A program made the position numbers and the translations under genes. A stretch of 64,000 bases of DNA from Verrucomicrobiales bacterium (GTDB lineage Bacteria > Verrucomicrobiota > Verrucomicrobiia > Verrucomicrobiales > DEV007), in contig JARGPJ010000001.1 in NCBI GenBank assembly GCA_029212615.1, positions 372,001 through 436,000 on the forward strand, given 5' to 3'. The notes under the pieces are model-generated. The model saw nothing but the letters and a program-made list of their open reading frames with translations, did not search any database and was not told where the DNA came from. Shown here one piece after another: positions 6,086 through 38,023 of this stretch; within the stretch, counting starts at the first letter, position 1; each line of letters begins with the position of its first letter.

Positions 6086-6124
6086 GGAATGACAAGACGC
6101 ATGACTTCGCCGTAGGCTTTCGTC

Positions 6125-7929: not shown

Positions 7930-7969
7930 GGCTTTTTCCCGCCGCGCAACCGCGAGAGAAGGAAAAGCC
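7930..7969. terminator. Likely bidirectional terminator hairpin
   Basis: Imperfect inverted repeat GGCTTTTTCC ... GGAAAAGCC with a GC-rich loop, lying between two convergent genes (sulfatase and A-type Fe-S protein). The T-rich arm gives a short U run on either transcript. Confidence 0.5.
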
Positions 7970-7983
7970 GGGGGACCGGACCG

Positions 7984-8346: not shown

Positions 8347-8395
8347 TGGGGAAATTCCGGCAGAGACGCCCCTTCTGCAAGCACAGAAAGAGGTC

Positions 8396-10396: not shown

Positions 10397-10435
10397 TGCG
10401 GTGCGAAACGCGGTCGGAAGGTGAAGAAAGGAAAC

Positions 10436-10924
10436 TTAGCTGACAAGGCGAAGCGCAAAGGGGTAGCGATAAGCAATACCTTTGTTCGCTTCGATACAGC
10501 CGAGGATACCAAAAATGAGGGAGGCGATCCCGATCGCCGGGTAAAGAAGGGCAGCAACACATCCAATCACCGGAATCATCGCAATGATTGAAGAAGCCAC
10601 GTACCCGATCAGTACCGTGATCTGAAAATTAAGCGCCTCTTTTCCCTGATCATCGACAAAAGGACTCTCCTCCCGCTTGATCAGCCAAATGATTAGTGGC
10701 CCCACGAAAGTTGTCACAGCTCCGAGAAGATGACAAAGGAGACCCATCGTCTTCTCCTCATTCTCAGCCATCTTACCCTGTCCCAATCCGATTCCGGCGG
10801 TGGAAGGTGCCTCCGTCGGCAACGAGTCCATGACAGAACCTTCAGAAGTCGGTTCCTTCGGCGGCGGAGCATCTTCTCCGGAAGAATTTTCATCCATGGG
10901 TGGCGGAGTGTCCTGATCGCTCAT
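10436..10924 (-). CDS. DUF4870 (Tic20-like) membrane protein with acidic Pro-rich head
   Basis: 162 residues from the preferred ATG (MSDQDTPPPM). Residues 1-55 are a Pro/Ser/Glu-rich disordered head. The rest shows the DUF4870 pattern: EKTMGLLCHLLG, a first helix, WLIKREESPFVDDQGKEALNFQ between helices, and two further hydrophobic helices. The function of the family is unknown. A TTG/ATG extension of 19 codons upstream has no added hydrophobic signal and is not preferred. It lies 39 bases upstream of the helicase start and may share its transcript. Confidence 0.82.
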   Translation of the reverse strand: MSDQDTPPPMDENSSGEDAPPPKEPTSEGSVMDSLPTEAPSTAGIGLGQGKMAENEEKTMGLLCHLLGAVTTFVGPLIIWLIKREESPFVDDQGKEALNFQITVLIGYVASSIIAMIPVIGCVAALLYPAIGIASLIFGILGCIEANKGIAYRYPFALRLVS

Positions 10925-11052
10925 GGGTATGAGATAAATCGAAAATCCTGCTTCATCAAGCAAATTGACTGAGGAAAACATCCTGCTTCACCACTTTAGT
11001 TGCGTCATTGACCCTCGATCCCGGTGACCGATATAGTTAAAGCATCCCCCGG

Positions 11053-11781
11053 ATGAAAATTCTCGTTGTTTCCGACATTCACTACAGCCTCCAGCAATAT
11101 GATTGGCTCACCGCGAAAAGCAGCACATACGATCTCATCATCATTGCGGGTGATCTGATGGAACTGGCTTCGACGGTTGATCTCGACACTCAGGCTTCTG
11201 TCGTCTCACAATACTTCCGCCGGATCAGTGCGCAGGTTCCGCTCGTCGTCTGTTCCGGAAACCATGATCTGCTGGAGGACTACGCCGGGGTCCGCTCCGC
11301 TGAGTGGCTCGAAGACCTCACTATTCCCGGGCTCACCGTCGATCACGGATCCTTCGAAAACGAAGTGCTCAGAATCCTCTCTTTTCCCTGGTGGGAAACA
11401 GAAGAGGAAAAAAGGCGCATTGAATCCTGGCTGGAAAACCAATCAAACCTCGACGACCCGCGCCCTGTATTCTGGGTTCATCACGCTCCCCCGCTCGGGG
11501 CAAAGACAAGTTGGAATGGAAAGCGTGACCTCGGCGACAAGTCACTCGTAGAGTGGATTGAACGCTACGCGCCCGATGTCGTTTTTTCCGGCCATGTCCA
11601 CAACGCCCCCTACTACGGACCGAAAGGGTCGTGGATCGATCGTGTCGGTTCCACCGTGGTCATCAATGGAGGCCGTCAGACCGGTGCGCGACCGGCCACC
11701 GTCGAACTGGAATTTGAAGACGGCCTTCTCACCTGGTGTGGCATGGAGGGTTGTGAAGAGCGATCACTTGCGACGGCCTAA
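11053..11781 (+). CDS. Calcineurin-like metallophosphoesterase
   Basis: 242 residues with all metal ligands: D8-I-H10 near the N-terminus, AGDLMEL, SGNHDLL, HHAPP and SGHVHNAP. Overall layout resembles the MPE superfamily members of the Icc/YfcE type, though the substrate (cyclic nucleotide, phosphodiester or protein) cannot be told. Its stop overlaps the stop of the convergent cNMP-binding gene by four bases. The pairing with a cyclic-nucleotide-binding protein is suggestive but may be chance. Confidence 0.88.
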   Translation: MKILVVSDIHYSLQQYDWLTAKSSTYDLIIIAGDLMELASTVDLDTQASVVSQYFRRISAQVPLVVCSGNHDLLEDYAGVRSAEWLEDLTIPGLTVDHGSFENEVLRILSFPWWETEEEKRRIESWLENQSNLDDPRPVFWVHHAPPLGAKTSWNGKRDLGDKSLVEWIERYAPDVVFSGHVHNAPYYGPKGSWIDRVGSTVVINGGRQTGARPATVELEFEDGLLTWCGMEGCEERSLATA

Positions 11782-12266
11782 AGCTTCTTTTTCAAATCCC
11801 GGTACAGAATTGAATCGAGCACCCCGTCAACCATCCCGACGTGGTCTGAACAGTCTTTAAGCTGATCTTTCACATCGACCAGATACTGAGTTGCCGCCGT
11901 GAGACGTGAAGCAAGCAACACGGAAACGTGAAGCGTCACCTCAGGATGCTCTTTGAGGAAATTGAGAGGGTCGGCGCACTCATACAGCTCCACCTCATCA
12001 AGCGCCAGCACCGTAGCCGTCGACGGCTGATGAAGCAGAATTGAGATTTCACCGAGAACACTGCCCGGAGTCTTAATCAAATTTACCCGGATCCCGTCAC
12101 GGGCGACTTCGAGGCGCCCCGACTTGAGAAAATATATCCGATCAAGCCTCGCTCCTTCTGAAATAATTTCAGCCCCGGCAGGAACCGAGATCACCGGAAG
12201 GCTGGATATGGAGGCTTCGATGCTCACGAAAGGATGGTAGCCCCACTTCCGCGAGGGTGGTAGCAA
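11778..12266 (-). CDS. Stand-alone cyclic-nucleotide-binding domain protein
   Basis: A single cNMP-binding (CAP-like) beta-roll of about 120 residues (PVISVPAGAEIISEGARLDR, LKSGRLEV, GSVLGEISILL) followed by a helical tail. There is no DNA-binding domain, so this is not a Crp/Fnr regulator; it is a ligand-sensing or adaptor protein. The phosphate-binding cassette is GEISILLHQPSTATV, where the ST-A element replaces the usual RxA Arg, so cAMP binding is doubtful. The listed start is TTG; a GTG 39 bases inside (VSIEAS) is as likely, since neither has a good ribosome site. Confidence 0.8.
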   Translation of the reverse strand: MLPPSRKWGYHPFVSIEASISSLPVISVPAGAEIISEGARLDRIYFLKSGRLEVARDGIRVNLIKTPGSVLGEISILLHQPSTATVLALDEVELYECADPLNFLKEHPEVTLHVSVLLASRLTAATQYLVDVKDQLKDCSDHVGMVDGVLDSILYRDLKKKL

Positions 12267-12367
12267 ATTGTCGGCAGAGGAGGAAGGGGGGGCGGCTCCG
12301 TCGACCGTGCCTCCCGCTTGTAGAGCCGATCACAGAAGAACACTCTGCATTGCAGCCGGGCTTCTGC

Positions 12368-12387
12368 GGACACGGGGGACCGTGTCC
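12368..12387. repeat. Perfect hairpin in a 167-base spacer
   Basis: GGACACGG-GGGA-CCGTGTCC, an 8-bp perfect stem with a four-base loop, downstream of queC on the minus strand. No U run follows on either strand, so it is not a classical intrinsic terminator. The rest of the spacer (12267-12433) is GC-rich and non-coding by eye, with a second weaker inverted pair CGGCTC/GAGCCG. It may be a dispersed palindromic element. Confidence 0.55.
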
Positions 12388-12433
12388 TTCCACGCCATAT
12401 CCAAACGCAGTGGAAAAGCTTCGGTCCCGGGGT

Positions 12434-13090
12434 TTAATCCTCGTAAAGAGTCCCGTCGACCAACTTCGCCAACATGAAGGCCTCTTTACGCTCGACACAG
12501 GTACCGCACTTTCCGCAGTGCACCTCTCCTCCCTTATAACAAGACCAGGTCTCGCTGAAATCGATACCGAGTTCATGTCCCATCACCGCAATGTCCTCTT
12601 TCCGTTGCGCGATAAACGGTCGCAGAACTTGAAGATCAACGTCTGTTCCCTGCGCAATCGCTTCCGCCATCGGGCTCATGAATTCTTCACGGCAGTCCGC
12701 GTAAATCGCATGATCACCTGAGTGAGCGGCAATCACGAGCGCATCGGCCCCCACACTTTCCGCAAAACCTGCCGAAATCGCAAGCATGATCCCATTCCGA
12801 AAAGGGACCACGGTTTGCTTCATGTTGGAAGCTTCGTAATGCCCTTCAGGAATCGCTCCCCCGCTTTGAAGAAGATCACTTTTAAACAAATCATTCATGA
12901 ACCCGAGGGAAACGACTTCGTGTTTCACCCCCAACCTGTTGCAGTGCAAAGCCGCAAAAGGAATCTCGCGATGATTGTGCTTGGATCCGTAATCGAAGCT
13001 CAATCCCGCTACGATTTCATGGTCGCGTTTTGCCTGATATAACGCGGTGACGGAGTCCATTCCCCCGCTGACAAGAACCACCACTTTCAT
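12434..13090 (-). CDS. queC: 7-cyano-7-deazaguanine synthase QueC
   Basis: ATP-dependent enzyme that turns 7-carboxy-7-deazaguanine into preQ0 in queuosine synthesis. 218 residues with the PP-loop SGGMDS near the N-terminus, the SLSFDYG-like GLSFDYGSKH block and the C-terminal zinc site formed by Cys in SCYKGGEVHCGKCGTC. Its ATG overlaps the TGA of queF by four bases, so the two are translationally coupled. QueD and QueE are not in this window. Confidence 0.97.
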   Translation of the reverse strand: MKVVVLVSGGMDSVTALYQAKRDHEIVAGLSFDYGSKHNHREIPFAALHCNRLGVKHEVVSLGFMNDLFKSDLLQSGGAIPEGHYEASNMKQTVVPFRNGIMLAISAGFAESVGADALVIAAHSGDHAIYADCREEFMSPMAEAIAQGTDVDLQVLRPFIAQRKEDIAVMGHELGIDFSETWSCYKGGEVHCGKCGTCVERKEAFMLAKLVDGTLYED

Positions 13091-13515
13091 GAAACTTCCT
13101 CAAGACCGGCATCTGGGTAGGAAGCGGTCGCGGTGAGTTGCACGCCCCCCCTCGGGGAAAATTTTCCGCGCACAATCATGCGGCGGGGATCACAGGCCGC
13201 AGCGAGTTCATCGAGAATCCGGTTCACGATCTCTTCATTGAAGGAAGGCGTGTTTCGAAACGAAGCGAGATAGAATTTAAGCGATTTCGTTTCGACACAT
13301 TTTTCACCCGGGATGTATTTGATCGTCAGATGCGCCGTATCCGGCTGGCCCGTCACAGGACAAAGCGAACTGAACTCAGGGTAATCGAGCTCGATCCAGT
13401 AGTTGCGATCCGCACTCCGGTTGGGAAATACTTCAAGCGTCGCCTCGTCCGGTGAACCGGGAAGCCGGTTTTCGCTGTGGCCGAGAAGGGTCAGATCTTT
13501 GACTGATGAAGACAT
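13087..13515 (-). CDS. queF: NADPH-dependent preQ0 reductase QueF (type I)
   Basis: Reduces preQ0 to preQ1, the step after QueC. 142 residues, the short unimodular type. The active-site Cys lies in LCPVTGQPD, the NADPH-binding motif is ETKSLKFYL, followed by FRN and a C-terminal GKFSPRGG segment. First gene of the queF-queC pair. The leader (13516-13619) was checked for a preQ1 riboswitch and no convincing one was seen. Confidence 0.96.
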   Translation of the reverse strand: MSSSVKDLTLLGHSENRLPGSPDEATLEVFPNRSADRNYWIELDYPEFSSLCPVTGQPDTAHLTIKYIPGEKCVETKSLKFYLASFRNTPSFNEEIVNRILDELAAACDPRRMIVRGKFSPRGGVQLTATASYPDAGLEEVS

Positions 13516-13619
13516 CTTATTAGAAGGAGAATTAGATTAGGGCAGGAATGGATTAAAGAATGGGAAGAGCCATACCGAAAGCAGAAATTCTCGACCTCTT
13601 TGCTTCCCCGATCCGCTTA

Positions 13620-14684
13620 TCAGTTCTTCCGAACAACGATCTCAACGCGACGGTTCAAGGCCTGATCATCAGCCGTCCCGTCAATTGAGACAATAGGGCG
13701 CTCCTTACCGAGACCCACGGTTTGAATATTTCCAGCATCAATTCTAAGGCGATCAACAAGCCACTGGCGCACCGCTTTTGCCCGCTTCAAACTCAGCTCA
13801 CGATTAAAGTCCTCCCCACCGAAACTGTCGGTGTGGCCCTCGATAATAAAAGTCGCATCGGGATTTGTCTGCACCACAAAGGCGAGCTTCATCATGCTGA
13901 GGCGGGCTTCCTCTTTCAGCTCGAATTCATTGTATTCGAAAAGAATGTCGGTCGGGAGCGCGATTTTTTCCTCACCGGAAGGCATGCCGCCCGATCGCCC
14001 GATCATTTCGTCGAGAGTGGAGTAACCCTGAATCAATTCATCAGCCCCGTTACCGAGCGCCTTCGCGGCCGCTTCTTTGAAAAACTCGTCCGTATCGACG
14101 CTGCTGCCGATGTCCTCAGTTTGATTCAGCTCCAGAGTTGGTTGCGCCACCGAAACGGTCGCCGAAGAATCAATGAGCTTGTTGCGCATGTCATCGAGGT
14201 CTTTCGAAAGCATCTCAGCGACGGGGATATCAAGCCCACCCGCCGCAATATCCAGCGCTTCACCGGGTGCTTTAGGTGCCTCGGCTGAAAAAATCTGCGG
14301 CGTTTCGATCGGCGCCATCCGGATCGTCTCGTCTTTCATCTCCTCCATGAGATCAAACTCGTCGAGCGACTTGTCGACCAAATCAAGATCACTCAATTTC
14401 TCCGGTTCGAGGGCCGTCTCTTCAGGGATAAACGGCTCCTCCAGCAGTTTATTCAGCTTCTCCTGATCGATTGAAATTTGCTCTCTCTTGCTACGCCAGA
14501 CAATAGATTCATCAGTTGAAACAAGTCCGCTCCTTTCGATTCCCGCAAGAATGATGTAAAGACAGATGTGAATGATGACGGAAACCAGGATCGCCAAAAC
14601 CACCCACCACCCGAGATTGCGGTTTTTCACTTTGAAGACCGATTGGCCTTTGGTGGACGGATGCCAGTCGAAAGAAGAAGACAT
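13620..14684 (-). CDS. Inner-membrane-anchored OmpA-domain protein
   Basis: 354 residues from the ATG chosen (MSSSFDWHP). A short cytoplasmic head is followed by one membrane segment (GWWVVLAILVSVIIHICLYIILAG), a long acidic, repetitive linker (about 60-210) and a C-terminal OmpA/MotB peptidoglycan-binding domain (ILFEYNEFEL, EGHTDSFGGEDFN, LSLKRAKAVRQWL, NRRVEIV). The N-terminal anchor makes it MotB/TonB-like in topology rather than an outer-membrane protein. No motA, exbB or tol partner is adjacent. It is divergent from the LMF gene. The upstream longer frame adds no supported sequence. Confidence 0.85.
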   Translation of the reverse strand: MSSSFDWHPSTKGQSVFKVKNRNLGWWVVLAILVSVIIHICLYIILAGIERSGLVSTDESIVWRSKREQISIDQEKLNKLLEEPFIPEETALEPEKLSDLDLVDKSLDEFDLMEEMKDETIRMAPIETPQIFSAEAPKAPGEALDIAAGGLDIPVAEMLSKDLDDMRNKLIDSSATVSVAQPTLELNQTEDIGSSVDTDEFFKEAAAKALGNGADELIQGYSTLDEMIGRSGGMPSGEEKIALPTDILFEYNEFELKEEARLSMMKLAFVVQTNPDATFIIEGHTDSFGGEDFNRELSLKRAKAVRQWLVDRLRIDAGNIQTVGLGKERPIVSIDGTADDQALNRRVEIVVRKN

Positions 14685-14752
14685 GGTAGAATTACTCTTA
14701 AGATAAGCGCATTTTCTCATTTCAGCAAAGGGGCACTCCCACTATAAAAACT

Positions 14753-16345
14753 GTGAAAAACTTCGATTGGCAGACAATTTTCGGACTCGATCTCGACCGG
14801 CATCGCATCGGGCGATCCTTCATGATTCGCGGCCTGGGAGTCATTTATCTCATCGCAATTTGCTCGTGGTGGACACAGGTCGCCCTCCTCGTCGGGGAAA
14901 ACGGGCTCTCCCCTGCTGGAAATTTGCACGAAATCCTTCGCGAACGACTCGGTTCAGCCGGTGAGAGCACTTTCCTCGCCCTCCCCAACCTCTTCTGGGT
15001 CCTGGGTACTACCGATTTTGCCTTTCACTTTATCTGCTTCATCGGGGCAATGCTCGCCGGACTCGTCATCATCGGCCGCTTCACCGGCTTTGCGCTTACC
15101 GGGCTCTGGTCGATCTATCTTTCGCTCGTAAATACCGGAGGCGTTTTCATGAGCTTTCAGTGGGATATTCTCCTTCTCGAAGTCGGCTTCCTTGCGCTCT
15201 TCCTGACTGACTGGAAGCTGAAAAGCAGTTGGCGCGACCCCGCTCCCCTGAGCACCATCAATCAGATTGCCCTCATTTGGTCCTGGCTCCTCATCGCCAA
15301 ACTCATGTTCTTTTCCGGATGGGTAAAGCTGGCCTGGGCGGGGGATGCCAGTCCGGAATGGTGGCCGGAGCGTTCCGCGATGCTCTATCACTACATGACG
15401 CAGCCGATCCCTTCGTGGACCTCCTGGCACGTCCACCACTGGCCCGAAGGCTTTCATTACCTTTCGATCTGGCCCATGTTTTTCATCGAACTCGTCCTCC
15501 CTTTTGCGATTACCTTCGGTCGCTTCGGCAGGCTTACTGCAGCGATCGGATTCACCCTCCTGATGATCCTCATCCTCGCGACGGGAAACTACACCTACTT
15601 CAACTGGCTCACCATCCTGCTCTGCTTTCCTCTCGTACAGGACCGCCTCTGGCCGCAATGGCTTCGCAAAGGAATCGGATTCCAACCGCTGGGACTCATC
15701 CCGCCCGCGGCTAAAAAGCCGCTCCTCATCAAACTTTCGCTTATCTCACCGTTCCTCGTCACCGTGCTGCTTCTGAATTTCCAAATTGTCGCCGGAGATC
15801 TGCATCGGGCACCGAAACCGGGACTCAAATTTGATCTCACCCCCGGATGGCTCGATAGTTTCCGAAATAAAATGGAACCTTTCCGCCTTGCTTCCGGCTA
15901 TGGGCTGTTCAGGACCATGACAACACAACGCCCTGAAATCATTTTAGAAGGAAGCTGGGACGGCATCACCTGGTTCGAATACGACTTTGTCTGGAAAGTT
16001 GACGAACTCTCGGACCCACCCAAATTCGTCGCCCCCCATCAACCCCGTGTCGCCTGGCAGTTCTGGTTCGCCGCGCTTGAACAAAGATTCAATCCCCGAA
16101 GCCGAAATGCGAAATGGATCGAATCCATCGTGATCAAACTCCTTCAAGACGACCCTGACGTTGAAAAATTAATCAAACGGAACCCGTTTCCTCATTCGCC
16201 CCCCCGGTTGATTCGAGCGAGACTATTTAACTATCAGTTCACTACCCCCGAAGAACGAAAGCAATCCGGTGACTGGTGGAAGCGCGTCGCCGCAGGAGAA
16301 TACCTCAGCCCCGTCAGTCTGAGCCAACCCGAAACATCACCCTGA
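14753..16345 (+). CDS. Lipase maturation factor (LMF) family membrane protein
   Basis: 530-residue polytopic membrane protein starting at GTG. The N-terminal two thirds hold many helices, with conserved SFQWDILLLE and FSGWVKL blocks; the C-terminal part carries the LMF signature (GLFRTMTTQRPEI, GSWDGITWFEYDF, PRVAWQFWFAAL). In animals LMF1 helps lipoprotein lipase fold in the ER; the bacterial homologues have no known function. No lipase lies nearby; the next gene, 13 bases downstream, encodes a small HExxH-type protein. Confidence 0.9.
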   Translation: MKNFDWQTIFGLDLDRHRIGRSFMIRGLGVIYLIAICSWWTQVALLVGENGLSPAGNLHEILRERLGSAGESTFLALPNLFWVLGTTDFAFHFICFIGAMLAGLVIIGRFTGFALTGLWSIYLSLVNTGGVFMSFQWDILLLEVGFLALFLTDWKLKSSWRDPAPLSTINQIALIWSWLLIAKLMFFSGWVKLAWAGDASPEWWPERSAMLYHYMTQPIPSWTSWHVHHWPEGFHYLSIWPMFFIELVLPFAITFGRFGRLTAAIGFTLLMILILATGNYTYFNWLTILLCFPLVQDRLWPQWLRKGIGFQPLGLIPPAAKKPLLIKLSLISPFLVTVLLLNFQIVAGDLHRAPKPGLKFDLTPGWLDSFRNKMEPFRLASGYGLFRTMTTQRPEIILEGSWDGITWFEYDFVWKVDELSDPPKFVAPHQPRVAWQFWFAALEQRFNPRSRNAKWIESIVIKLLQDDPDVEKLIKRNPFPHSPPRLIRARLFNYQFTTPEERKQSGDWWKRVAAGEYLSPVSLSQPETSP

Positions 16346-28411: not shown

Positions 28412-29443
28412 CTATCGAGGCAGACCCGGGCCGCCGGGCACCTTTTTCGGCGTCGGCGCATCCGCAGAATTGCTCGGCTCAACAGGCTTCACCGACTTTA
28501 AATACTTGAAGAGGTCACTGTCAGTCGTCAGCACCACAGTGCTGTCACCCAGAACATCGCTGTAGAGCTCAAGCGTCCTCACAAACTCATAAAACTCAGC
28601 CGCTTCAGGCGACTGGTTGTATGCCTTAGCGTATATTTCAGTCGCAGTGGCATCCGCTTCACCCATCGTCACCTGAACGGTCTTGTAAGCCTCTGATTCG
28701 ATCTTTCTCAGATCTCGCTCCATGTCTCCGAGAATCTTGGCCGCTTCGCCGGCACCCTCGGAACGGAATCGTTCCGCGATCTGCTGACGCTCAGAAATCA
28801 TTCGATCATAAATACGCTCCTGCACACTTTGATTGTAATTGATGCGCTTGAATCGTGCATCGAGCAGCTCGATTCCAAATTCGCGCAACTTTGCCCTCGC
28901 CGTTTTGTAGATATCGCTCTCGAGAGCGCTGCGACCGCGACGGATTGGAATAAGCTTCCCGACGGAACCGGAAAGATCCGCTTCGACAAGATCTTCGTCG
29001 ACGGTTTCTTTGCGGTCTTTTGTCGTGCGAATCACCTCGATCAACTCATGTTTAGCGACAGCATTCCTCACTTCCGAGCCAAGAATATCATCAAGACGTG
29101 ACTGGGCGCTTCGTTCATCCCGGAGCTTTTCAAAATACCGTAGCGGGTCGGTAATCATCCAACGTGCATAGGTATCAACCATGATATAAGTCTTATCCTT
29201 GGTCGGCATTTCAGTCGCGCGGCCGTCCCACTCAAGAATTCGCTTATCGAACCGATTCACCTTCTGGAGGAACGGAATCTTAAATTTCAATCCCGGTTCC
29301 TTAACAGGATCACCTACCGGCTCACCAAATTGAGTGACAATGATCTGCTCTGTTTCAAGCACAGTATAAATGCCGCCGGAAGCGACCACAAAAACAGCCA
29401 AGGCAGCGAGAGCAACAAGGCATCCAAATCCAGTTTTCTTCAT
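28412..29443 (-). CDS. hflC: SPFH-domain membrane protein HflC
   Basis: 343 residues: short N-terminal membrane helix (about 7-27), then an SPFH/prohibitin domain (YTVLETEQIIVTQFGEP, EPGLKFKIPFLQKV, YIMVDTYARWMI) and a coiled-coil tail (ISERQQIAERFRSEG, EADATATEIYAKAYNQSPE). In the HflKC complex it encloses and modulates the FtsH protease at the inner membrane. The gene follows hflK by 21 bases. The C-terminus ends in a Pro-rich tail. Confidence 0.94.
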   Translation of the reverse strand: MKKTGFGCLVALAALAVFVVASGGIYTVLETEQIIVTQFGEPVGDPVKEPGLKFKIPFLQKVNRFDKRILEWDGRATEMPTKDKTYIMVDTYARWMITDPLRYFEKLRDERSAQSRLDDILGSEVRNAVAKHELIEVIRTTKDRKETVDEDLVEADLSGSVGKLIPIRRGRSALESDIYKTARAKLREFGIELLDARFKRINYNQSVQERIYDRMISERQQIAERFRSEGAGEAAKILGDMERDLRKIESEAYKTVQVTMGEADATATEIYAKAYNQSPEAAEFYEFVRTLELYSDVLGDSTVVLTTDSDLFKYLKSVKPVEPSNSADAPTPKKVPGGPGLPR

Positions 29444-29464
29444 GGGAAATTAGAGGGGGTAAAA

Positions 29465-30460
29465 TTATTTCGCGCGAGTCACTTCCGGAGTTGGCGTAAG
29501 TGGTAAAAAGGGAAGGACCTGGCTTGCGCCTTCATCCAAAATCACCTTTTTGCCCAGTCGCGGCATCACTTCCTCCATCGTCTCAAGATAGATGCGTCGA
29601 CGGGTAACCTCCGAAGCTTTCTGATATTCGGTGAAAAGCGCATTAAACCGCTCCGCATCACCTTCAGCCTCATTTATTCGCATCGTTGCGTAACCCTCCG
29701 CTTCGGAAATAGTTTTCTCCGCCTCACCGCGCGCACGCGGCACTGCCCGATTATACTCGCCATTCGCTACGTTGATCGATTTCTCTTTCTCCTGTTGAGC
29801 CTGATTCACTTCGTTGAAGGAAGCCTGGACCGGCTGAGGAGGATCGACGTCCTTCAACTGAATCTGATCAATTGTAAAACCCAATTCATAGAGGTCGACC
29901 AAAGCTTTGAGCTTCTCATTACATTCCGACTCGATCTCCTGTCGTCCGATCGTGATAACTTCATCAACGGTGCGATCTCCAACTACTTCACGCATCACCG
30001 CCTCACTTGCGGCGCGAAGAGTGGCGTCCGCATTCCTGACCTGAAAAAGATACTTTTCCGGTTCGGTGATACGATACTGGATGACCCACTCCACAAGCGC
30101 GGCGTTGAGATCACCTGTTACCATGTTTTTTTCAAGCTCCATTTCGGCAGGACTCGCCCACTGACTGGAATTTGAGTTGCCGGCGGTTCCAAAGCCAAAC
30201 TCCTGTTTCTGCTGACGACGAACCGGAACGGTAATGTGCTGATCAATTCCGAAAGGGAGTTTAAAATGCAAGCCCGGTTCAACCGTATCAATGTGTTTTC
30301 CAAATCGAAGGACGACTCCTGCCTCCTCCACTTGAACTGTGTAGAAGGAGCCGAGTGCTCCGATCACGAGGACAATCGCCGCGATCACTCCGAAAATGGC
30401 TTTCGGACTGAAAGACGGCGGTTTCAGTTCAACAATTTCGTTTCCAACCTGAATGCGCAT
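29465..30460 (-). CDS. hflK: SPFH-domain membrane protein HflK
   Basis: 331 residues from the ATG MRIQVGNEIV; a TTG 14 codons upstream is possible. One membrane helix (about 21-41) is followed by an SPFH domain (TVQVEEAGVVLRFGKH, VEPGLHFKLPFGI) and a coiled-coil region (ANGEYNRAVPRARGEAEKTI). It lacks the long Gly-rich cytoplasmic head of E. coli HflK. First gene of hflK-hflC. ftsH is not in the window. Confidence 0.92.
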   Translation of the reverse strand: MRIQVGNEIVELKPPSFSPKAIFGVIAAIVLVIGALGSFYTVQVEEAGVVLRFGKHIDTVEPGLHFKLPFGIDQHITVPVRRQQKQEFGFGTAGNSNSSQWASPAEMELEKNMVTGDLNAALVEWVIQYRITEPEKYLFQVRNADATLRAASEAVMREVVGDRTVDEVITIGRQEIESECNEKLKALVDLYELGFTIDQIQLKDVDPPQPVQASFNEVNQAQQEKEKSINVANGEYNRAVPRARGEAEKTISEAEGYATMRINEAEGDAERFNALFTEYQKASEVTRRRIYLETMEEVMPRLGKKVILDEGASQVLPFLPLTPTPEVTRAK

Positions 30461-30495
30461 ATTAAGTAGGGTAAACGGGTAATCGATACGATCCA

Positions 30496-30605
30496 GTGAC
30501 AATTCATGTCACCTTTTGGAATCTCTCTTAAAGATAAATTAACGGGCGCGAATCTTGCTCATCATTAAAAAAACCTTCATGCTCAATGAATCACCGATTC
30601 ACTGA
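30496..30605. promoter_or_regulatory. Spacer with two inverted repeats ahead of the pseudopilin cassette
   Basis: GTGACA-ATTCA-TGTCAC (30496-30512) is a perfect 6-bp dyad just upstream of hflK. A second, TCAATGAATC-ACC-GATTCACTGA (30583-30605), has 10-bp arms with one mismatch and ends 18 bases before the first cassette ATG, where it would form a leader hairpin or an operator. Both are in the divergent spacer. Confidence 0.45.
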
Positions 30606-30623: not shown

Positions 30624-31349
30624 ATGAAGACGAAAGAAAAGCATGCTCATTCGCCTCCTGCCCCGGAAAAGGGTCAGTTGCGAAATGGCTTTTCACTCGT
30701 AGAACTGCTCATCGTCATGGCAGTGGTTGGTCTTCTCCTCGCGCTTACCGCTCCCAACATGCTGGACCTGAGCCCCTCCCGGAAAGCAGCGGCGATCGAG
30801 TTGGCAGGCTTTCTTGAAAGAGCGAGATCGAAAGCTCTCTCCACAGAGGATGAAGTGTTCGTCGCCTTCGCCAATAAAAACCATCCTGTCGAGTCATTGC
30901 GTTTTCGCTCCTACGCCTATTTCACGAAGGAAATTGATTCTGATCCCGAAACCTCTCTGGCCACCCGCCCCCTGAGACAGATTTCGGAATGGCTTGAGCT
31001 TCCTCCGGGGATGGTCTTTGGAAACGCCTCACACTTCTCCGCTGAAGCTGAGTATCCCATTCGAACGATTCATGATCTGCCCTATCTCCGCGACTTTTCG
31101 GTTCAAAGTGACTCTGGCGGCGCCCGGACGGTCCAATTCCCTTATTTAGTTTTCGCACCTTCAGGTCAAGTGATCGTCCCCTCGTTTGCCAATGCTGACG
31201 GCCTCAATCTCGCTGTTCTGGAAGGAATGGTGAGTGCGAATGGACAAAATATTAAACCGTTCGGCGCTGAAAGTAAATCAGGAGCCGGCAAAGGGGAACT
31301 CCTTCAGATTTCCTATTACACCGGCAGGGCCAGCATATTGACCGACTAG
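30624..31349 (+). CDS. Verru_Chthon cassette protein D, GspH-like minor pseudopilin
   Basis: 241 residues. A 22-residue basic leader ends in Gly, followed by the prepilin helix FSLVELLIVMAVVGLLLALT; cleavage would fall between Gly22 and Phe23, and Glu at mature position 5 is present. The globular part (LEFLER-like LAGFLERARSKALSTEDEVFVAF) shows the helix-then-strand start of GspH/FimT. It would be processed by PilD and inserted into a pseudopilus. First gene of a tightly packed run; two bases separate it from the next. Cassette naming is from memory of the TIGRFAM families. Confidence 0.88.
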   Translation: MKTKEKHAHSPPAPEKGQLRNGFSLVELLIVMAVVGLLLALTAPNMLDLSPSRKAAAIELAGFLERARSKALSTEDEVFVAFANKNHPVESLRFRSYAYFTKEIDSDPETSLATRPLRQISEWLELPPGMVFGNASHFSAEAEYPIRTIHDLPYLRDFSVQSDSGGARTVQFPYLVFAPSGQVIVPSFANADGLNLAVLEGMVSANGQNIKPFGAESKSGAGKGELLQISYYTGRASILTD

Positions 31350-31351
31350 CG

Positions 31352-31882
31352 ATGAACATACTTCCGACCAGAGATCGCAGACCATTCCAGCACGGCTTCA
31401 GCCTTGCGGAGGTCACGATTTCAATCGGGATTGTTTCAGCGATCCTCCTTCCCATCATTGGCCTTCTTGCGACAGGCACCCAACTCGCCACCGTCTCTCA
31501 GGACCAGCAAACTTCATCCCGTATTGCAGACCTTGTCTCCGAAAGCATTAAAGCGGAAGGCGGGATCCACCTCATCCTACTGGGAGAACATTCCAGCGGC
31601 TTCCCGCTCGACAGCAGCGGACAGGAAACCCTCCTGACATTTTCTACCGATGGGGAATTTTTAAGGGAAGTCACCCCTTCAGATTACTCATCCGGTGTTC
31701 AAGATGATGAAAAGGCGGCCTACCTGGTGAGCGCATCCCTGACTCCTGTTATTCCCGTGAGCGGTTCGATACCCAGATCAGTACCCATCTTGCAAGTCGA
31801 AATAGAAGTGCAACATCCCGCCGTCACAGCCGAAGATGATCGAACCGGGCAGCGCTTCACTTCACGTGTTGTTGCTCCATGA
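31352..31882 (+). CDS. Verru_Chthon cassette protein B, GspI-like minor pseudopilin
   Basis: 176 residues. Leader of 15 residues ending HG, then the prepilin helix FSLAEVTISIGIVSAILLP with Glu5. The small size and the short globular domain match GspI/PilV-like minor pseudopilins. Its TGA overlaps the ATG of the next gene (ATGA), so expression is coupled. In type II secretion, GspI nucleates the tip complex with GspJ and GspK. Confidence 0.87.
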   Translation: MNILPTRDRRPFQHGFSLAEVTISIGIVSAILLPIIGLLATGTQLATVSQDQQTSSRIADLVSESIKAEGGIHLILLGEHSSGFPLDSSGQETLLTFSTDGEFLREVTPSDYSSGVQDDEKAAYLVSASLTPVIPVSGSIPRSVPILQVEIEVQHPAVTAEDDRTGQRFTSRVVAP

Positions 31883-33099
31883 AAACATCGCGGACCATCT
31901 TCAATTCGGGCGCCACCCTCATTGAGTTGATCACCGCAATGTCCATCCTCCTCGTCATTCTGTTGATGTTGAGCACCGCTCTGGACGCCTCTCTCGGCCA
32001 ATTTCGCCAGAGCACGGACCGCACCGCGAAACGAACTTCAGCCAGAGCTGCCCTGCAATGGCTGGAACGGGATTTGGAGACAGTGCTCCTTCCCCGACCG
32101 GCCCGACTCTCACCACTCCCCGATTCAGCAACAACAGCGCAACGGGAATTCTTTGAAAGCCGCCTTTTCTATCCAACCGAAATCAATCGATCTCAACACT
32201 CCGGTGACAAGCAAAGCCTGCCCAACGCTTCAGACAAATTTGACCGCCTCTGTTTTGTCTCCCAGATCCCGGGGACTCCACAGCTGGACCCTGCCTTGAA
32301 CTCCAATACACGTCGTGCAGACCCGGCCCCGTCCATCGTCGGCTACTATGTGGCCTACACTCGCAATTCACCGTTAAAAGGAGACACCCTTGCAAGCATG
32401 AAACTCTTCCGGCATTTCAGACCCGGAAGCTCAGTGAGTGGGCAGCGATACGCCAACGAATTCCTTTCCTACTGCGCTACAGAAATCAACAGCCGCAGCG
32501 AACTCGGCCAACCCCTCTCAGCTCCCAATTCTGCCGCCGTTCGAAAAGGACTCTTTTCCAATACGGAACTCCCTTCACTTCTCGGCATGAGGCTGCCCAA
32601 CGATCCTTCAGCCTCCCCGGAAGAAAGCGATGCCGCGTGGCCGGTATTTCCTCTTACCAACTACCTTACCGAACCGCCACCGGCCCTGAACCCAAACCGG
32701 GGTAACCTCAACGATTGGGAGAATCCGGATCATTCTGTCCACCATACTGTTTTTCCGGATGAATCGCTCTGCCGAAATGTCGTTCGTTTCGAAGTCAGGC
32801 CGGAACGACGCGTTGAAACCTCCCCCGGCGTATTCGAGACACTTGAAGCCTCTGAAATCAATACCCATCTCGGCCTGAGCAACGGAGATGAATGGCCTTG
32901 TCTCGTCGTCCCCGACTATCTCTATATCACGGTCGGAGTCATCAATGAAGCAACTGCCCGAACCCTCACTCGATACGAAGACTGGCTTGTTGACTGGAAG
33001 ATCACCGACCCTTCTGATTGGTCCGAAACCCGGACAAAAATCGAGCGAAGCCTTCAGACGTTTCAGCTCAAAGTCAAACTGAGGAGGGCCGCGACATGA
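31879..33099 (+). CDS. Verru_Chthon cassette protein C, GspJ-like minor pseudopilin
   Basis: 406 residues, about twice the size of ordinary GspJ. Leader of 11 residues ending SG, then ATLIELITAMSILLVILLML with Glu at position 5. The mature part begins like GspJ (TAKRTSARAALQWLERDLE) and continues with a large, probably extracytoplasmic domain rich in Pro and Ser. Overlaps the preceding and following genes by four bases each. Confidence 0.87.
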   Translation: MKTSRTIFNSGATLIELITAMSILLVILLMLSTALDASLGQFRQSTDRTAKRTSARAALQWLERDLETVLLPRPARLSPLPDSATTAQREFFESRLFYPTEINRSQHSGDKQSLPNASDKFDRLCFVSQIPGTPQLDPALNSNTRRADPAPSIVGYYVAYTRNSPLKGDTLASMKLFRHFRPGSSVSGQRYANEFLSYCATEINSRSELGQPLSAPNSAAVRKGLFSNTELPSLLGMRLPNDPSASPEESDAAWPVFPLTNYLTEPPPALNPNRGNLNDWENPDHSVHHTVFPDESLCRNVVRFEVRPERRVETSPGVFETLEASEINTHLGLSNGDEWPCLVVPDYLYITVGVINEATARTLTRYEDWLVDWKITDPSDWSETRTKIERSLQTFQLKVKLRRAAT

Positions 33100-36000
33100 A
33101 GCCTGACACAATCCAAAGTTCGAAAGCAGGAGCAGCCCTCATCACCACTTTGATTCTCGTCTCGGCCATAGCGCTCATTGTTGTCAGCCTCTTTGCTGTC
33201 AACCGCCAGGAAATCGAGTCCACCGGATCGAACCTCGCAAAAACACGCGCTAAACTTGCAGAATCAGCTGCTTTCGAAGACGCGTCCAGCCTCCTGCGCA
33301 GCTTCACTGAAACCGACAATTATCTCATCACGGCGACCACTGAGGGAAGCGGCAGCGATCTAACCCGGTACTACTATGTATCAACTCCCCAATCTGATTC
33401 GTTGATCCATACCCCTCTCTTCGTCGGCGGCAAAACGGAGAACACTTCCATGCCGAATCTGGACACAAAGGAAACATCCCGGTTGGCATCCAGCCCGGTC
33501 GGCCCGCCACCGCTTCAATTTTCCAGTCGGGAAGCCGAAGGCAGGATCGAACTTCCTCCCCTCACCCACCTTGCCGCCAATGGAGAAACATTTCCGGAAA
33601 ACAGGTTTCCGACCACGGGCTTCATCGAACTCGATCAAGCTGCCAGCCCATCACTCGATCCGCGCAACAGGAACCCCGGGGCACGCTACACCTACTGGAT
33701 CGAAGACCTTGAGGGCTACCCAAACCTCGATGCCATTATATCGCGAACCGATCACCACCTCACCGACGAGGGAACCCCTTACCCCGACTTCTTCCGGGGA
33801 GGCTACCCGGAAGACGACTCTCGAACCGATCTCTCGTCCAGCGGCGACGAGGGCCTCCGTCTATGTTCTGCGGAGAACTCCTCCGTCTTCTACCAGTTTC
33901 CTAAAGCCTACCGTGGACAGAAACGAGCCGGACAAATCGCCCCGGGTCTCAGCGCCTCCGACTTTTCACCCCTACCCTGGTCCACCCCTACGCTTGGTTT
34001 TAATGACCATCCCTACGCAAGAATCAAAGAGTTGGCGAATCACCCGATCCACCACCTGCCACTCCTGCCCGGGAAAACCGCACCTGAGGTGAACCGGTTT
34101 TCATCGGGACTCTCCCCATGGCTCCAACGCCCCATGATTCCCTATGGGCACGGCTACTCCGATGAAGGGCTCCCACGTTTCAACATCAACGAACTCGTTG
34201 CGACCAGCGACATGTCGTTGGCGACCATCATCGAGCGGAACCTCCCCAACTTCGAGAATCGCAGGGGTGGCTTTCCGGAAAACCCGGTCAATCCAGCGAC
34301 CGGCGATTACACTGCCACCATTGCCGCGAGCCTCATCGACTACGCGGATAAGGATGACCTCCCTTCGACGCCGGACAATACCATTAACACGACAGGACAA
34401 GTCTTCCGAGGTGTCGATAGCTACTGTCCAGTGAATGAGTTCTTCATCAAGTTCGAGTATCATGGATACCAACACTCGGGAAGCAACTATACCCTTATCT
34501 TCAGAGGTGAAGTATTCGCCGAATTCTGGAACACCTTCAATGTTACCGCAAAAATGAACGAAGTAGGCGTCGACTTTCAGTTTCTGGATGACCCTCAGTT
34601 CACCTGCTTCACGTCGGCCTGGATTCTGGAACCCTCAGCGATCACCAAGAACGAACCCCTCGATCTGCCAGTCCCATCAATCAGCGTCGCCCCCAACGAG
34701 ATCAAAGTAGTCAGTTTCGGCGAAATCGAATGGAGAGTCTCCGTGAGCGATACAGGAGGACTGCCTGTTGCATTTCCTGTTGTCGAAGACTTCAAAGCAC
34801 AAGCGTCCGCTGGAAATGTTAATCCACGCGCGACATACACACTCAAACTTGCGAACATCACCGCTGACTCAAGCGGGAGGAGTCCCGCAGGTTTTGATGA
34901 TGCGCACGGATTCTTCTTCTATCAGGAAAGCAGACTGGCTCAAAACGATCCAGTCATGAGAGTCGGCGGCTCCGTCCCAAGGCACAAAGCGCACGGGTCA
35001 GGCACCAGTGCCCCCGGCAGCAGTGAACATGGGATCCAGGGGACTACCCTGGGCGATCCATGGATGAATTATTACACCACTTCCACGGTCGATAACTACC
35101 GGTTCCGGGGATCCGAGTACAGAAACCACGCATCCCCCGGCTCGAGAAATCTCTCGCAATCTGCCGTGCCCTCCAGCCGCGAAGATTGTTTCAGCGATCA
35201 GGCACGAATCCGCGACTGGCCGGACCGGGGTTACGAAAATCCAATCGGAATCAGCCCGTCTTCTGACTCCGTCCTACCTGACGACCCTTCCTTTATCCTA
35301 CCGACCGACCCGCGGCGCGCCCCGTGGAGGATCTCCAATGAGGGACGGTTTTTCTCGATCACCGAACTGGGGAATATTCACGACCCCGTGATGTGGGTTT
35401 ATGGAGACGACACTGCGACGACAGTTCTCGGAGGTCAAAACTACCGGGACCCGATTGATCGAAGTATCCTCAACCCCTACCTCGTCAGTCTACCTTCCAA
35501 TGCGAAAGCCAACCCCAGATATGGAGGAGGAAACACTTTGCGCATAGGAAGGCCGGAGCATGAGAAATTCGACCAGCCCGGAATGCGCGCAAGCCAACTC
35601 CTCGACCTCTTCCACGCCGCATCGAACGGCTCCAATCTCTCCACCGTCTCCTCAAGTGAGATCGATCTTCTCTACGAGAATTTTTCCCCCGCCGATCACC
35701 GGGATCCGCCCACGGCCGGGGATGAGAATAAGGCACAACGTGAACCTTTCCTTTCCCTATATGACCCCGAGAGGCATGCCCTCGGAGATCTGGAATCACA
35801 ATGGGGGAAACTGAATATAAACACAGCCCCCACCTTATTCGAAATTGAGGCGCTGCTAAGAGGGCCTCTCGTGTCCTCAGATTTAGTCGTTGAGGCGGGA
35901 ACGGAAGATCACCCGATCAGCCCGGACTACAGTGACGAAGGAACCCTGGGCGAACTCACTAAGAGCCTCGATCGCGAAGCGATTCCGCTTATCGCACTGG

Positions 36001-36320
36001 GACTCTACGAGGCGAGACCATTTTACAACCCGTCACATCTCGCCCGGGTCCTCTCAGAATTGATCAAACAACACGACGCGCTTCCTCATCACCACAACGA
36101 TGCCGAAGCAGAGGAAACTTTCGCGCGCATCTTCAATACGACCTCCTTCAACAGTCGTCACTTTCGCATCTACACATACGCTGAAACCTATCAAACCACG
36201 ACAGGTGCCATTCTCTCGCGCGACAGCAAAGCATACGAAGTCTTTATCGAACCGGAACGCGATGAGAATGGCGACATCGTATCAAACACGCTTCGCCTCC
36301 TTAAAGTGTCCAACCCCTGA
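33096..36320 (+). CDS. Verru_Chthon cassette protein A, giant GspK-like minor pseudopilin
   Basis: 1074 residues. The ATG at 33096 has an AGGAGG site 7 bases upstream and overlaps the previous stop. Leader of 12 residues (MKPDTIQSSKAG) then AALITTLILVSAIALIVVSL; Thr sits at mature position 5 where the other pseudopilins have Glu, a hallmark of GspK, the tip subunit. Like GspK it has an NxNTA block late in the chain (W903-G-K-L-N-I-N-T-A) and an early YWIEDLEGYPNLDA segment. A very large inserted region (about 250-880) is unlike any enterobacterial GspK and probably forms the exposed head. It has no transmembrane segment besides the prepilin helix. Confidence 0.88.
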   Translation: MKPDTIQSSKAGAALITTLILVSAIALIVVSLFAVNRQEIESTGSNLAKTRAKLAESAAFEDASSLLRSFTETDNYLITATTEGSGSDLTRYYYVSTPQSDSLIHTPLFVGGKTENTSMPNLDTKETSRLASSPVGPPPLQFSSREAEGRIELPPLTHLAANGETFPENRFPTTGFIELDQAASPSLDPRNRNPGARYTYWIEDLEGYPNLDAIISRTDHHLTDEGTPYPDFFRGGYPEDDSRTDLSSSGDEGLRLCSAENSSVFYQFPKAYRGQKRAGQIAPGLSASDFSPLPWSTPTLGFNDHPYARIKELANHPIHHLPLLPGKTAPEVNRFSSGLSPWLQRPMIPYGHGYSDEGLPRFNINELVATSDMSLATIIERNLPNFENRRGGFPENPVNPATGDYTATIAASLIDYADKDDLPSTPDNTINTTGQVFRGVDSYCPVNEFFIKFEYHGYQHSGSNYTLIFRGEVFAEFWNTFNVTAKMNEVGVDFQFLDDPQFTCFTSAWILEPSAITKNEPLDLPVPSISVAPNEIKVVSFGEIEWRVSVSDTGGLPVAFPVVEDFKAQASAGNVNPRATYTLKLANITADSSGRSPAGFDDAHGFFFYQESRLAQNDPVMRVGGSVPRHKAHGSGTSAPGSSEHGIQGTTLGDPWMNYYTTSTVDNYRFRGSEYRNHASPGSRNLSQSAVPSSREDCFSDQARIRDWPDRGYENPIGISPSSDSVLPDDPSFILPTDPRRAPWRISNEGRFFSITELGNIHDPVMWVYGDDTATTVLGGQNYRDPIDRSILNPYLVSLPSNAKANPRYGGGNTLRIGRPEHEKFDQPGMRASQLLDLFHAASNGSNLSTVSSSEIDLLYENFSPADHRDPPTAGDENKAQREPFLSLYDPERHALGDLESQWGKLNINTAPTLFEIEALLRGPLVSSDLVVEAGTEDHPISPDYSDEGTLGELTKSLDREAIPLIALGLYEARPFYNPSHLARVLSELIKQHDALPHHHNDAEAEETFARIFNTTSFNSRHFRIYTYAETYQTTTGAILSRDSKAYEVFIEPERDENGDIVSNTLRLLKVSNP

Positions 36321-36324
36321 GAAC

Positions 36325-37026
36325 ATGATTCGTCTGCTAACCGCTCTCGCTCTTCCCGGAATTTCGGCACTTCCTACTCTTTCTGCCCAGGAAGACTTCA
36401 CGGACCAGGCCGGAATACTTCAAGTCATGAACCTGGTCTCCTTAAAAACACCAACCTACATGTCGCTTGATGCTTTCAAGTTTAACCGGGGAGAACCTGT
36501 CGAAATAGGTTCGGGCTCAGGGAGCCTCGCCCTGCGACCCGGTGAGCTGACTTTCTCAATTGCAAACCCCGGGGCGAAGCCGGCGACCGCCACTCTCCCC
36601 ATCAACATCGAGAACGGAAAGTCAGTCGTCGTCATTTGCTATGACGAAGTGAAGTCGTTCAAAGACGGGAGCGAAGAAGCCAGGCTTCGCTTCAGTGTCC
36701 TGACTGAAGCACCTCCAACAACGGTGCCCGAGCTCACTCTGGTATCTCTCATGACAGAGGAAAGTATTTCTCTCTCGATCGAAGGCCGGCCCTACCGGGT
36801 AAAACCGAAATCTCCCGTCGATATCGACATCGCCGACAAAGAAACTGTCGCCATTAAATCGGGAAAGAAAACGTTAATCGATTTTGAATCGGAACGTCCC
36901 GGCCACTACATTGTCTTCCTCTTTCAAGACCCCGAAGCAGGCGAACCCTCCGCTTCACTCGTTCACAACGAAACGCTTGAATATCATCCTCCACGGGAAG
37001 AGGACGACGAAGATCCTGATCAGTGA
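36325..37026 (+). CDS. Secreted protein of two tandem copies of one small domain, linked to the cassette
   Basis: 233 residues. The ATG at 36325 follows the cassette A stop by four bases and opens a signal peptide (MIRLLTALALPGISALPTLSA). The rest divides into two repeats of about 95 residues, each beginning with LVSLxT-x4-SL, then PV-(E/D)-I, a beta-rich stretch, and a strand rich in V/I/L; the second copy starts near TLVSLMTEESISL. It ends in an acidic tail (EEDDEDPDQ). No family is recognised. Position and spacing put it in the cassette operon, so it may be a substrate or a periplasmic partner of the pseudopilus. Its 3' end overlaps convergent folP by seven bases. Confidence 0.75.
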   Translation: MIRLLTALALPGISALPTLSAQEDFTDQAGILQVMNLVSLKTPTYMSLDAFKFNRGEPVEIGSGSGSLALRPGELTFSIANPGAKPATATLPINIENGKSVVVICYDEVKSFKDGSEEARLRFSVLTEAPPTTVPELTLVSLMTEESISLSIEGRPYRVKPKSPVDIDIADKETVAIKSGKKTLIDFESERPGHYIVFLFQDPEAGEPSASLVHNETLEYHPPREEDDEDPDQ

Positions 37027-37865
37027 CGGATCGCGGCAATGACGCGCACGCTGTCAGCGACAGCTTTGACGTGATGAACACGAAAGATGTCCGCCTTTGC
37101 AACGAGCCCGCGAACGAGACAGGCTATCGTTCCCGCATCCCGATCTGCCGGGTTCTCAATTCCTAACACCTCGCCGATCACCGTCTTTCTGGAAATAGGA
37201 AGAAGCACTGGAAGATCGCAGGCGACGAGGCGTTCGAGTTCACGGTAGATTGAAAGATTATCATCCCGCTGTTTCGCAAAATCGATCCCCGGATCGAGGA
37301 TGATCTGGTCATCGCTCAATCCTATCCGCCGCGCTCTGGCGATACGGTCGTTAAAGAACTCCATCATCGTTTCCCAGATATTTTCATATCTCTGCGTGAG
37401 ATGCGGCACCTTGGGCTCTCCGACAGTGTGCATGATCAAAAGCGTCGCCCCGAATTCGAAACAGAGCCGGGCATTGGTATCTTCGACAAGGCCGCCAATG
37501 TCGTTGATAATATCCACCTTCCCGGTCTTCAGCACGGCGGCCACGATATCAGGACGCCAGGTATTCACCGAAAGAAGCGGAGGCCAAATTTGCAACTCAT
37601 CGCGCGGCTGAAGCTCTTCACAGGCTGCGGAGAACGCCTCGATAAATGGAGCAAGCCGATCAATCTCCGCATTCGGAGAAATAGCCTCCCGGTTCGTTCG
37701 CGCACTTTCCGCCCCGACATCGATGATGTCAGCACCGTCGAGAACCATCTGGACGGCCTGATGAAGCGCTGCCTCTATATCGAGAGTGCCGTCACCGGAA
37801 AAAGAATCATCATTAATGTTAACGATCCCCATGACCCGGGGAAAAGACCGGAGAAGGTCTTTCAT
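37020..37865 (-). CDS. folP: Dihydropteroate synthase, divergent
   Basis: 281 residues from the ATG (MKDLLRSFPRVMG); a GTG 13 codons upstream is an alternative. Pterin-binding TIM barrel of the DHPS type: MGIVNINDDSFSGDG, INDI, DPGIDFAK, PISRKT and the C-terminal RVHHV are all recognisable. Some residues differ from the standard: the usual VTPDSFSDGG loop is INDDSFSGDG, ESTRPG is ESARTN, and the pterin-contact Asp in SVDT is Asn101 (SVNT). It may be a lineage-specific active DHPS or a related enzyme. No other folate gene is adjacent. Confidence 0.8.
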   Translation of the reverse strand: MKDLLRSFPRVMGIVNINDDSFSGDGTLDIEAALHQAVQMVLDGADIIDVGAESARTNREAISPNAEIDRLAPFIEAFSAACEELQPRDELQIWPPLLSVNTWRPDIVAAVLKTGKVDIINDIGGLVEDTNARLCFEFGATLLIMHTVGEPKVPHLTQRYENIWETMMEFFNDRIARARRIGLSDDQIILDPGIDFAKQRDDNLSIYRELERLVACDLPVLLPISRKTVIGEVLGIENPADRDAGTIACLVRGLVAKADIFRVHHVKAVADSVRVIAAIRH

Positions 37866-38023
37866 GCTCTTGCCCCCCCGTTGCTCAAAAAGCAGCGCAC
37901 GCACGCTTTGAAAAACTCCGTAAAGCCCTTCAAATCACCAGTCGCGACATCTTTCATCTTTGCCAGTGGATGAAAAAGAGCCACTTACTTCAACTCTAAA
38001 AGCGAGATTCTCGCGCTATCAAA

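What the first reader, a model, noticed from the sequence alone, without database searches (positions are those of the whole stretch)
30624..36320. Verru_Chthon cassette is a complete GspH-I-J-K-type minor pseudopilin module
Seen: three of the four proteins have prepilin leaders cut after Gly, with Glu at mature position 5; the fourth, giant one, lacks Glu5 (Thr instead) and has the late N-x-N-T-A block of GspK. Order (H, I, J, K) equals that of gsp operons. Known: these families were named as a cassette of unknown function in Verrucomicrobium and Chthoniobacter. Inference: the cassette makes the tip complex of a pseudopilus or secretion device, with an enlarged GspK head (1074 residues) that could be the effector or receptor. 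No gspD, E, F, G or pilD is nearby, so the cassette would rely on a shared machine, and different cassettes could be swapped on it.
Basis: partly seen in the sequence, partly recalled or inferred. Interest (0 to 1): 0.75.

Follow-up and report, generated by a model that had tools for sequence, protein, structure and literature searches.

The report
Machine-less pilus-tip cassette with giant GspK
A Verrucomicrobiales bacterium carries, apart from any secretion or pilus machine, a tight five-gene operon that encodes the four tip subunits of a type II secretion-like pilus, one of them (GspK) about three times its usual size, plus an exported partner protein, which suggests add-on tips for filament machines encoded elsewhere in the genome.

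Summary
The window (30624-36320) holds D-B-C-A = GspH-I-J-K in gsp order, with 4-nt overlaps or 2-4-nt gaps. Mature Glu5 is kept in D 18/18, B 16/16 and C 22/22 orthologs, and in A 0/19. AlphaFold models match solved pseudopilins: A matches GspK/XcpX (Z 12.0; next unrelated 5.4) and C matches GspJ (Z 10.9; next unrelated 4.1). A's extra ~410 residues lie between the two GspK-specific blocks and are as conserved as the rest. B=GspI and D=GspH rest on weaker profile evidence.

The label 'Verru_Chthon' fails: all four proteins are far below the curated cut-offs, and A's soluble part is not related to Verru_Chthon A by profile comparison. A true Verru_Chthon cassette lies elsewhere in this genome.

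Across 122 cassette stretches (2.15 Mb, partly overlapping) no Gsp/Pil machine gene was found. The genome nevertheless has two T2SS loci with their own I-J-K, other T4P/T2SS cores and one prepilin peptidase gene. It is therefore a machine-less tip module, most likely served by a core encoded elsewhere. Which core, and whether tips are swapped, is not shown.

The parts
30624..31349 (+). Protein D, GspH-type prepilin (241 aa; mature from F23, Glu5)
   Evidence: Pfam GspH in 5 of 18 orthologs, best 3e-4
31352..31882 (+). Protein B, GspI-type prepilin (176 aa; mature from F16, Glu5)
   Evidence: profile match to GspI over 136 columns, 95.8%
31879..33099 (+). Protein C, GspJ-type prepilin (406 aa; mature from A12, Glu5)
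   Evidence: fold match to EpsJ/XcpW/GspJ, Z 10.9-10.3; Foldseek top six hits EpsJ
33096..36320 (+). Protein A, giant GspK-type prepilin (1074 aa; mature from A13, Thr at position 5)
   Evidence: fold match to XcpX/GspK, Z 12.0, 210 of 259 residues, 3.5 A
34161..34370 (+). A residues 356-425: first GspK block (LN-N...IDYADKD)
   Evidence: profile alignment to GspK, second segment
34371..35780 (+). A residues 426-895: region enlarged by about 410 aa relative to GspK; beta-sandwich at 443-621, then conserved but poorly modelled 622-895
35781..36140 (+). A residues 896-1015: second GspK block with GKLNINTAP
36325..37026 (+).
28412..30502 (-). hflC and hflK (conserved divergent flank, not part of the cassette)
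   Evidence: identity named from sequence
37020..37904 (-). folP, dihydropteroate synthase (conserved convergent flank, not part of the cassette)
   Evidence: identity named from sequence

Best explanation
The operon encodes the tip complex of a type II secretion-like (type 4 filament) pseudopilus. D, B and C are GspH-, GspI- and GspJ-type minor pseudopilins. A is a GspK-type cap, enlarged by about 410 residues between the two halves of its alpha-domain. E is an exported partner. Shown: fold of A and C, leaders, Glu5 pattern, order, tight operon, conservation of all five genes, absence of a linked machine. Inferred: the single prepilin peptidase cuts the four leaders; B nucleates an I-J-K complex; A, lacking Glu5, caps it; a GspE/GspF/GspG core encoded elsewhere (the tip-less core on contig C6 is one candidate) builds a filament below it; and the large head of A, with E bound to it, is what the filament presents to or pushes towards a secretin, as receptor, adaptor or cargo handler. 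Binding of E to A is a guess from its position, by analogy with CofJ on CofB and PilY1 on the T4P tip.
For: GspK fold of A: the three top PDB matches are XcpX (Z 12.0, 11.9, 11.0), then 5.4. GspJ fold of C: EpsJ 10.9, XcpW 10.5, GspJ 10.4, then 4.1 beyond the pilins, Foldseek prob 0.99. Profile matrix: A is best against K, B against I, C against J. With N-terminal helices removed, A still gives three collinear weak segments on GspK. Glu5 18/18, 16/16, 22/22, 0/19; the capping subunit of type 4 filaments is the one without Glu5 (PMC10191384). D-B-C-A-E is conserved in relatives. No machine gene in 122 cassette stretches, against ready detection at six control loci. Machines and one peptidase gene in the genome.
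Against: No complex was modelled. The folds of B and D were not predicted. The soluble parts of B, C and D do not match GspI/J/H by profile alone (GspH profile not built). The genome's T2SS loci already have their own I-J-K, so these tips are not needed for basic secretion. No cassette is linked to any machine, so the partner is unknown. Residues 622-830 of A are modelled with low confidence. No expression or phenotype data.
Confidence: 0.75

Rival explanations
1. The cassette is the tip of a type IV pilus rather than of a T2SS pseudopilus: H-I-J-K minor pilins are shared by both, A acts as a tip adhesin or DNA receptor (as ComZ does in Thermus) and E as a tip effector.
For: The genome has two T4P-like loci with PilB/PilT/PilQ. 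H-I-J-K sets are common to T4aP and T2SS (PMC10191384). ComZ is GspK-like with a large inserted domain and binds DNA at the pilus tip (PMC6561018). B weakly hits PilV.
Against: A has the GspK blocks and fold with XcpX on top. One T4P locus (C12) already has its own minor prepilins including a Glu5-less 553-aa one. E has no PilY1 family match.
Confidence: 0.25
2. Each cassette is an additional secretion tip dedicated to one or few substrates, E being its own substrate (tip and cargo), working with the ordinary T2SS.
For: E is exported, directly behind A, and belongs to a different family in different cassette clades, as cargo might. GspK is considered to control pseudopilus length (PMC6211770).
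Against: E is small and shows no enzyme domain. Canonical Verru_Chthon cassettes have no E. No test of secretion was possible.
Confidence: 0.2
3. A remnant or independent envelope complex: the four prepilins form a membrane-anchored complex that is never put into a filament.
For: No machine is linked in any cassette.
Against: Leaders and Glu5, which serve filament assembly, are strictly kept. All five genes are conserved, with mean column identities of 43-48%.
Confidence: 0.1

Closest known systems
T2SS minor pseudopilins GspH-I-J-K (XcpU-V-W-X), PDB 3CI0, 5VTM
   Same: Order, leaders, Glu5 in three and not in the K subunit, GspJ fold of C, GspK pilin plus alpha-domain fold of A
   Different: A is 1074 aa against about 310; C is 406 aa against about 200; a fifth exported protein replaces gspL/M after K; no machine genes linked; below curated GspK cut-off (30.8 against 130 bits)
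Verru_Chthon cassette (NCBIfam TIGR02596, 02598, 02599, 02600)
   Same: Four prepilins of H, I, J and giant K kind in Verrucomicrobiota; no machine nearby
   Different: Canonical order is A-B-C-D without E (C1 of this genome, L042); window proteins score far below cut-offs; soluble part of A unrelated by profile
ComZ of Thermus thermophilus (PMC6561018)
   Same: GspK-like pilin fold with a large inserted domain, thought to sit at the filament tip
   Different: ComZ inserts a beta-solenoid between the last two strands of the pilin fold; A enlarges the GspK alpha-domain region; no DNA binding tested
CofB/CofJ and modular tip pilins (PMC8179133)
   Same: Large tip pilin with an exported partner
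   Different: CofB is a T4b minor pilin with modules at its C-terminus; no search made here links E to CofJ

Membership tests
T2SS-type minor pseudopilin module (GspH-I-J-K) | Prepilin leaders, Glu5 in H, I, J and not in K | tested here: met
   D 18/18, B 16/16, C 22/22, A 0/19
T2SS-type minor pseudopilin module (GspH-I-J-K) | K subunit with pilin fold plus inserted alpha-domain | tested here: met
   XcpX Z 12.0, 210 of 259 residues at 3.5 A; collinear blocks
T2SS-type minor pseudopilin module (GspH-I-J-K) | J subunit with GspJ fold | tested here: met
T2SS-type minor pseudopilin module (GspH-I-J-K) | I and H subunits of GspI and GspH fold | tested here: inconclusive
   B-GspI profile match 95.8% over 136 columns but carried by the helix; D hits Pfam GspH in 5 of 18 orthologs; no models
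T2SS-type minor pseudopilin module (GspH-I-J-K) | Curated T2SS_GspK score (130 bits) | tested here: not met
   30.8 bits, N-terminus only; the genome's two normal GspK also fall below it (69.6, 59.9), so the cut-off does not discriminate here
T2SS-type minor pseudopilin module (GspH-I-J-K) | I-J-K form one complex at a filament tip | not testable with these tools
   no multimer prediction, no experiment
Complete T2SS locus | Linked gspD/E/F/G | tested here: not met
   none in 122 cassette stretches including the whole window
Verru_Chthon cassette (TIGR02596/02598/02599/02600) | Curated cut-offs of the four models | tested here: not met
   27.9/70, 30.2/51.4, 22.5/256.5, 19.4/332.3 bits
Verru_Chthon cassette (TIGR02596/02598/02599/02600) | Relation of protein A outside the pilin helix | tested here: not met
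   profile probability 0.9%, against 99.7% for another D-B-C-A-E clade
T4aP minor pilins with PilY1 | PilY1-type non-pilin partner | tested here: not met
   no PilY1 family match in E or its orthologs
Modular tip pilin / ComZ-like DNA receptor | Extra module inserted in a GspK-like pilin | tested here: met
Modular tip pilin / ComZ-like DNA receptor | DNA or ligand binding | not testable with these tools
   needs purified A

The most novel reading that the evidence does not exclude
Verrucomicrobiales use several machine-less, separately encoded H-I-J-K tip cassettes, each with its own giant conserved GspK head and its own exported partner, on one or few shared filament cores, so that one type II secretion or type 4 filament machine performs several different tasks depending on which cassette is expressed.
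Probability: 0.3. Interest if true: 0.8.

Novelty: new variant of a known kind. Interest (0 to 1): 0.55.

Why it matters
It gives a concrete identity to a class of gene cassettes for which no paper was found here, and extends the modular-pilin idea to GspK: a tip subunit about three times the usual size plus an exported protein, encoded far from any machine. It makes a clear question testable: can one filament machine be re-tasked by swapping its tip complex? It would also help explain the many orphan prepilins in Verrucomicrobiota genomes.

Tried and rejected
Filing as Verru_Chthon: rejected on cut-offs and on profile comparison. Sequence search of the PDB with profiles of A-E: only pilin helices, or nothing for E. 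Pfam T2SSK (PF03934) as a GspK counter: not useful, it matches stretches in ORFs of other sizes and misses the genome's own GspK. Foldseek alone on A: no E below 0.001; GspK at ranks 7 and 21; the structural re-alignment resolved it. Weak Z of about 5 between A 446-616 and adaptin/GGA appendage domains: treated as a common beta-sandwich, not kinship. The idea that Akkermansia shows cassettes without a T2SS: rejected, its giant prepilins stand alone without B, C, D. E as two repeats of one domain: not supported.

Full report
OBSERVATION. The window lies at G000:C13:372001-436000 of a 4.55-Mb genome in 21 contigs, a Verrucomicrobiales to judge by the named relatives of the cassette. The four ORFs are as described. 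D and B are separated by 2 nt, B/C and C/A overlap by 4 nt, and A is followed after 4 nt by a fifth ORF, E (36325-37026), with a signal peptide. Leaders are cut after Gly, with Glu at mature position 5 in D, B and C and Thr in A. In orthologs Glu5 is kept in 18/18, 16/16 and 22/22 sequences and absent in 19/19 A.

CONSERVATION. A has relatives in 24 of 75 genomes of its family; one of these (G009) is an N-terminal match to another cassette type. Neighbouring genes show the same D-B-C-A-E order, often between hflK/hflC (divergent) and folP (convergent). A scan of 84,980 species genomes gave 90 matching places, of which 80 were kept (partly the same contigs as the family orthologs), all in Verrucomicrobiota, among them Luteolibacter, Haloferula, Roseibacillus and a MAG labelled Prosthecobacter; the loci read show the same H-I-J-K order, in many with an E-like gene behind A.

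IDENTITY OF THE SUBUNITS. AlphaFold2 on a 19-sequence alignment of A gave pTM 0.76 and mean pLDDT 72.5: a 60-residue N-terminal helix, pilin strands at both ends of the chain, and the rest between them. The structural re-alignment puts XcpX/GspK first three times (Z 12.0, 11.9, 11.0; 210 of 259 residues at 3.5 A), and the next match is 5.4. C (pLDDT 85.7, pTM 0.82) matches EpsJ, XcpW and GspJ (Z 10.9, 10.5, 10.4); beyond pilins the next is 4.1, and Foldseek ranks EpsJ first six times. Profile comparison with GspK, J and I built from other Verrucomicrobiota gives the cognate pattern: A-K 94.0%, C-J 97.4%, B-I 95.8% over 136 columns. This rests mostly on the helix. Without it only A-K keeps a weak, collinear signal, at A residues 360-425, 903-913 and 1009-1036. 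D hits Pfam GspH in 5 of 18 orthologs. So A=GspK and C=GspJ are shown at the level of predicted fold; B=GspI and D=GspH are likely.

THE GIANT HEAD. Between the first and second GspK blocks the reference GspK (L215) has about 70 residues and A has about 480. The extra part holds a beta-sandwich (443-621) and a poorly modelled but very conserved stretch; the best-conserved 12-mer of the whole protein is GGGNTLRIGRPE at 810. The insert (0.52-0.64 conservation) is about as conserved as the pilin part (0.51-0.61), which speaks for one constant task rather than a variable adhesin.

THE FIFTH GENE. E orthologs are 21-52% identical to E; two of 15 touch DUF4397 (best 0.002). E of the Luteolibacter-Roseibacillus clade is homologous (99.2%). 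In other D-B-C-A-E clades (L245, L251, L258; L259, L260, L104) the same position holds exported proteins not detectably related to it. The position is conserved, the family is not. Mechanism suggestion only: a partner carried by the head of A, as CofJ on CofB (PMC8179133) or PilY1 on the T4aP tip (PMC10191384).

NOT VERRU_CHTHON. Against TIGR02596, 02598, 02599 and 02600 the four proteins score 27.9, 30.2, 22.5 and 19.4 bits for cut-offs of 70, 51.4, 256.5 and 332.3, at the N-terminus or little beyond. The genome's true Verru_Chthon cassette is on C1 (A 434.7 and 380.9 bits; order A-B-C-D, no E, L042). Soluble A of the window against soluble Verru_Chthon A gives 0.9%, while another D-B-C-A-E clade gives 99.7%. 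So giant GspK cassettes form at least two deeply separate groups, of which the window represents one without a curated model.

MACHINES. tblastn with 18 of the genome's own machine proteins found nothing in 122 cassette stretches (2.15 Mb, partly overlapping), while each query was found at control loci. The genome has a T2SS-like locus on C18 with its own I-J-K and secretin, a second set on C7 with its own GspF and H-I-J-K and no GspE or secretin seen in the stretch read, T4P-like loci on C12 and C18, and on C6 a core of two GspE, GspF and GspG without minor pseudopilins or secretin in the stretch read (gene names given from sequence and). It has seven secretin matches and one prepilin peptidase gene (two matches in one ORF). 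Among 12 good genomes of the family, normal-length GspK number 1-3 and giant ones 1-4 by the same model, with more giants by TIGR02600. 'Many tips, one machine' is thus seen at most in part. Akkermansia-type genomes of the same order mostly lack GspK, and the giant prepilins read there stand alone.

INFERENCE. The module most likely starts and caps a T2SS-like filament whose core is encoded elsewhere, with A (and perhaps E) as the working head. That the tips are exchanged on one machine is attractive but unproven. In the library searched, no paper was found that mentions these cassettes. One paper reports strong enrichment of pilins and pseudopilins in some Verrucomicrobiae (PMC12487129), and another 67 homologs of one PulG-like pseudopilin in a verrucomicrobial genome (PMC13274419).

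Noticed in passing
L046 (G000:C6:48000-62000), 5386-10828: A tip-less T2SS-like core: two GspE, GspF and GspG, with no H-I-J-K and no secretin in the stretch read; a candidate partner of the orphan tip cassettes.
   Followed up: partly
L265-L271 (Akkermansia-type genomes, same order): Stand-alone giant prepilins (about 1130-1390 aa) without B, C or D neighbours; several copies share one N-terminus (KGFALIATITLMMLLALLSVGLLTIASSQ) but differ in length and end, some ending after 322 aa, near oppositely oriented ORFs; this looks like repeated rearrangement.
   Followed up: no
L042, L246, L248, L252: The canonical Verru_Chthon cassette lies repeatedly between aroA and a pair that looks like actA/actB of alternative complex III.
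   Followed up: no
L261 (3253-12212), L263 (6152-14645): Tandem duplications of canonical Verru_Chthon protein A (1332-1512 aa) next to a single set of other prepilins.
   Followed up: no
L245, L251, L258, L259, L260, L104: Other H-I-J-K-partner cassettes in which the exported partner behind giant GspK belongs to families not detectably related to E of the window.
   Followed up: partly
L044 (G000:C12:155000-174000), 4473-16204: T4P-like locus with many prepilins of its own, among them a 553-aa Glu5-less one (8218-9879) that may be its K subunit.
   Followed up: no
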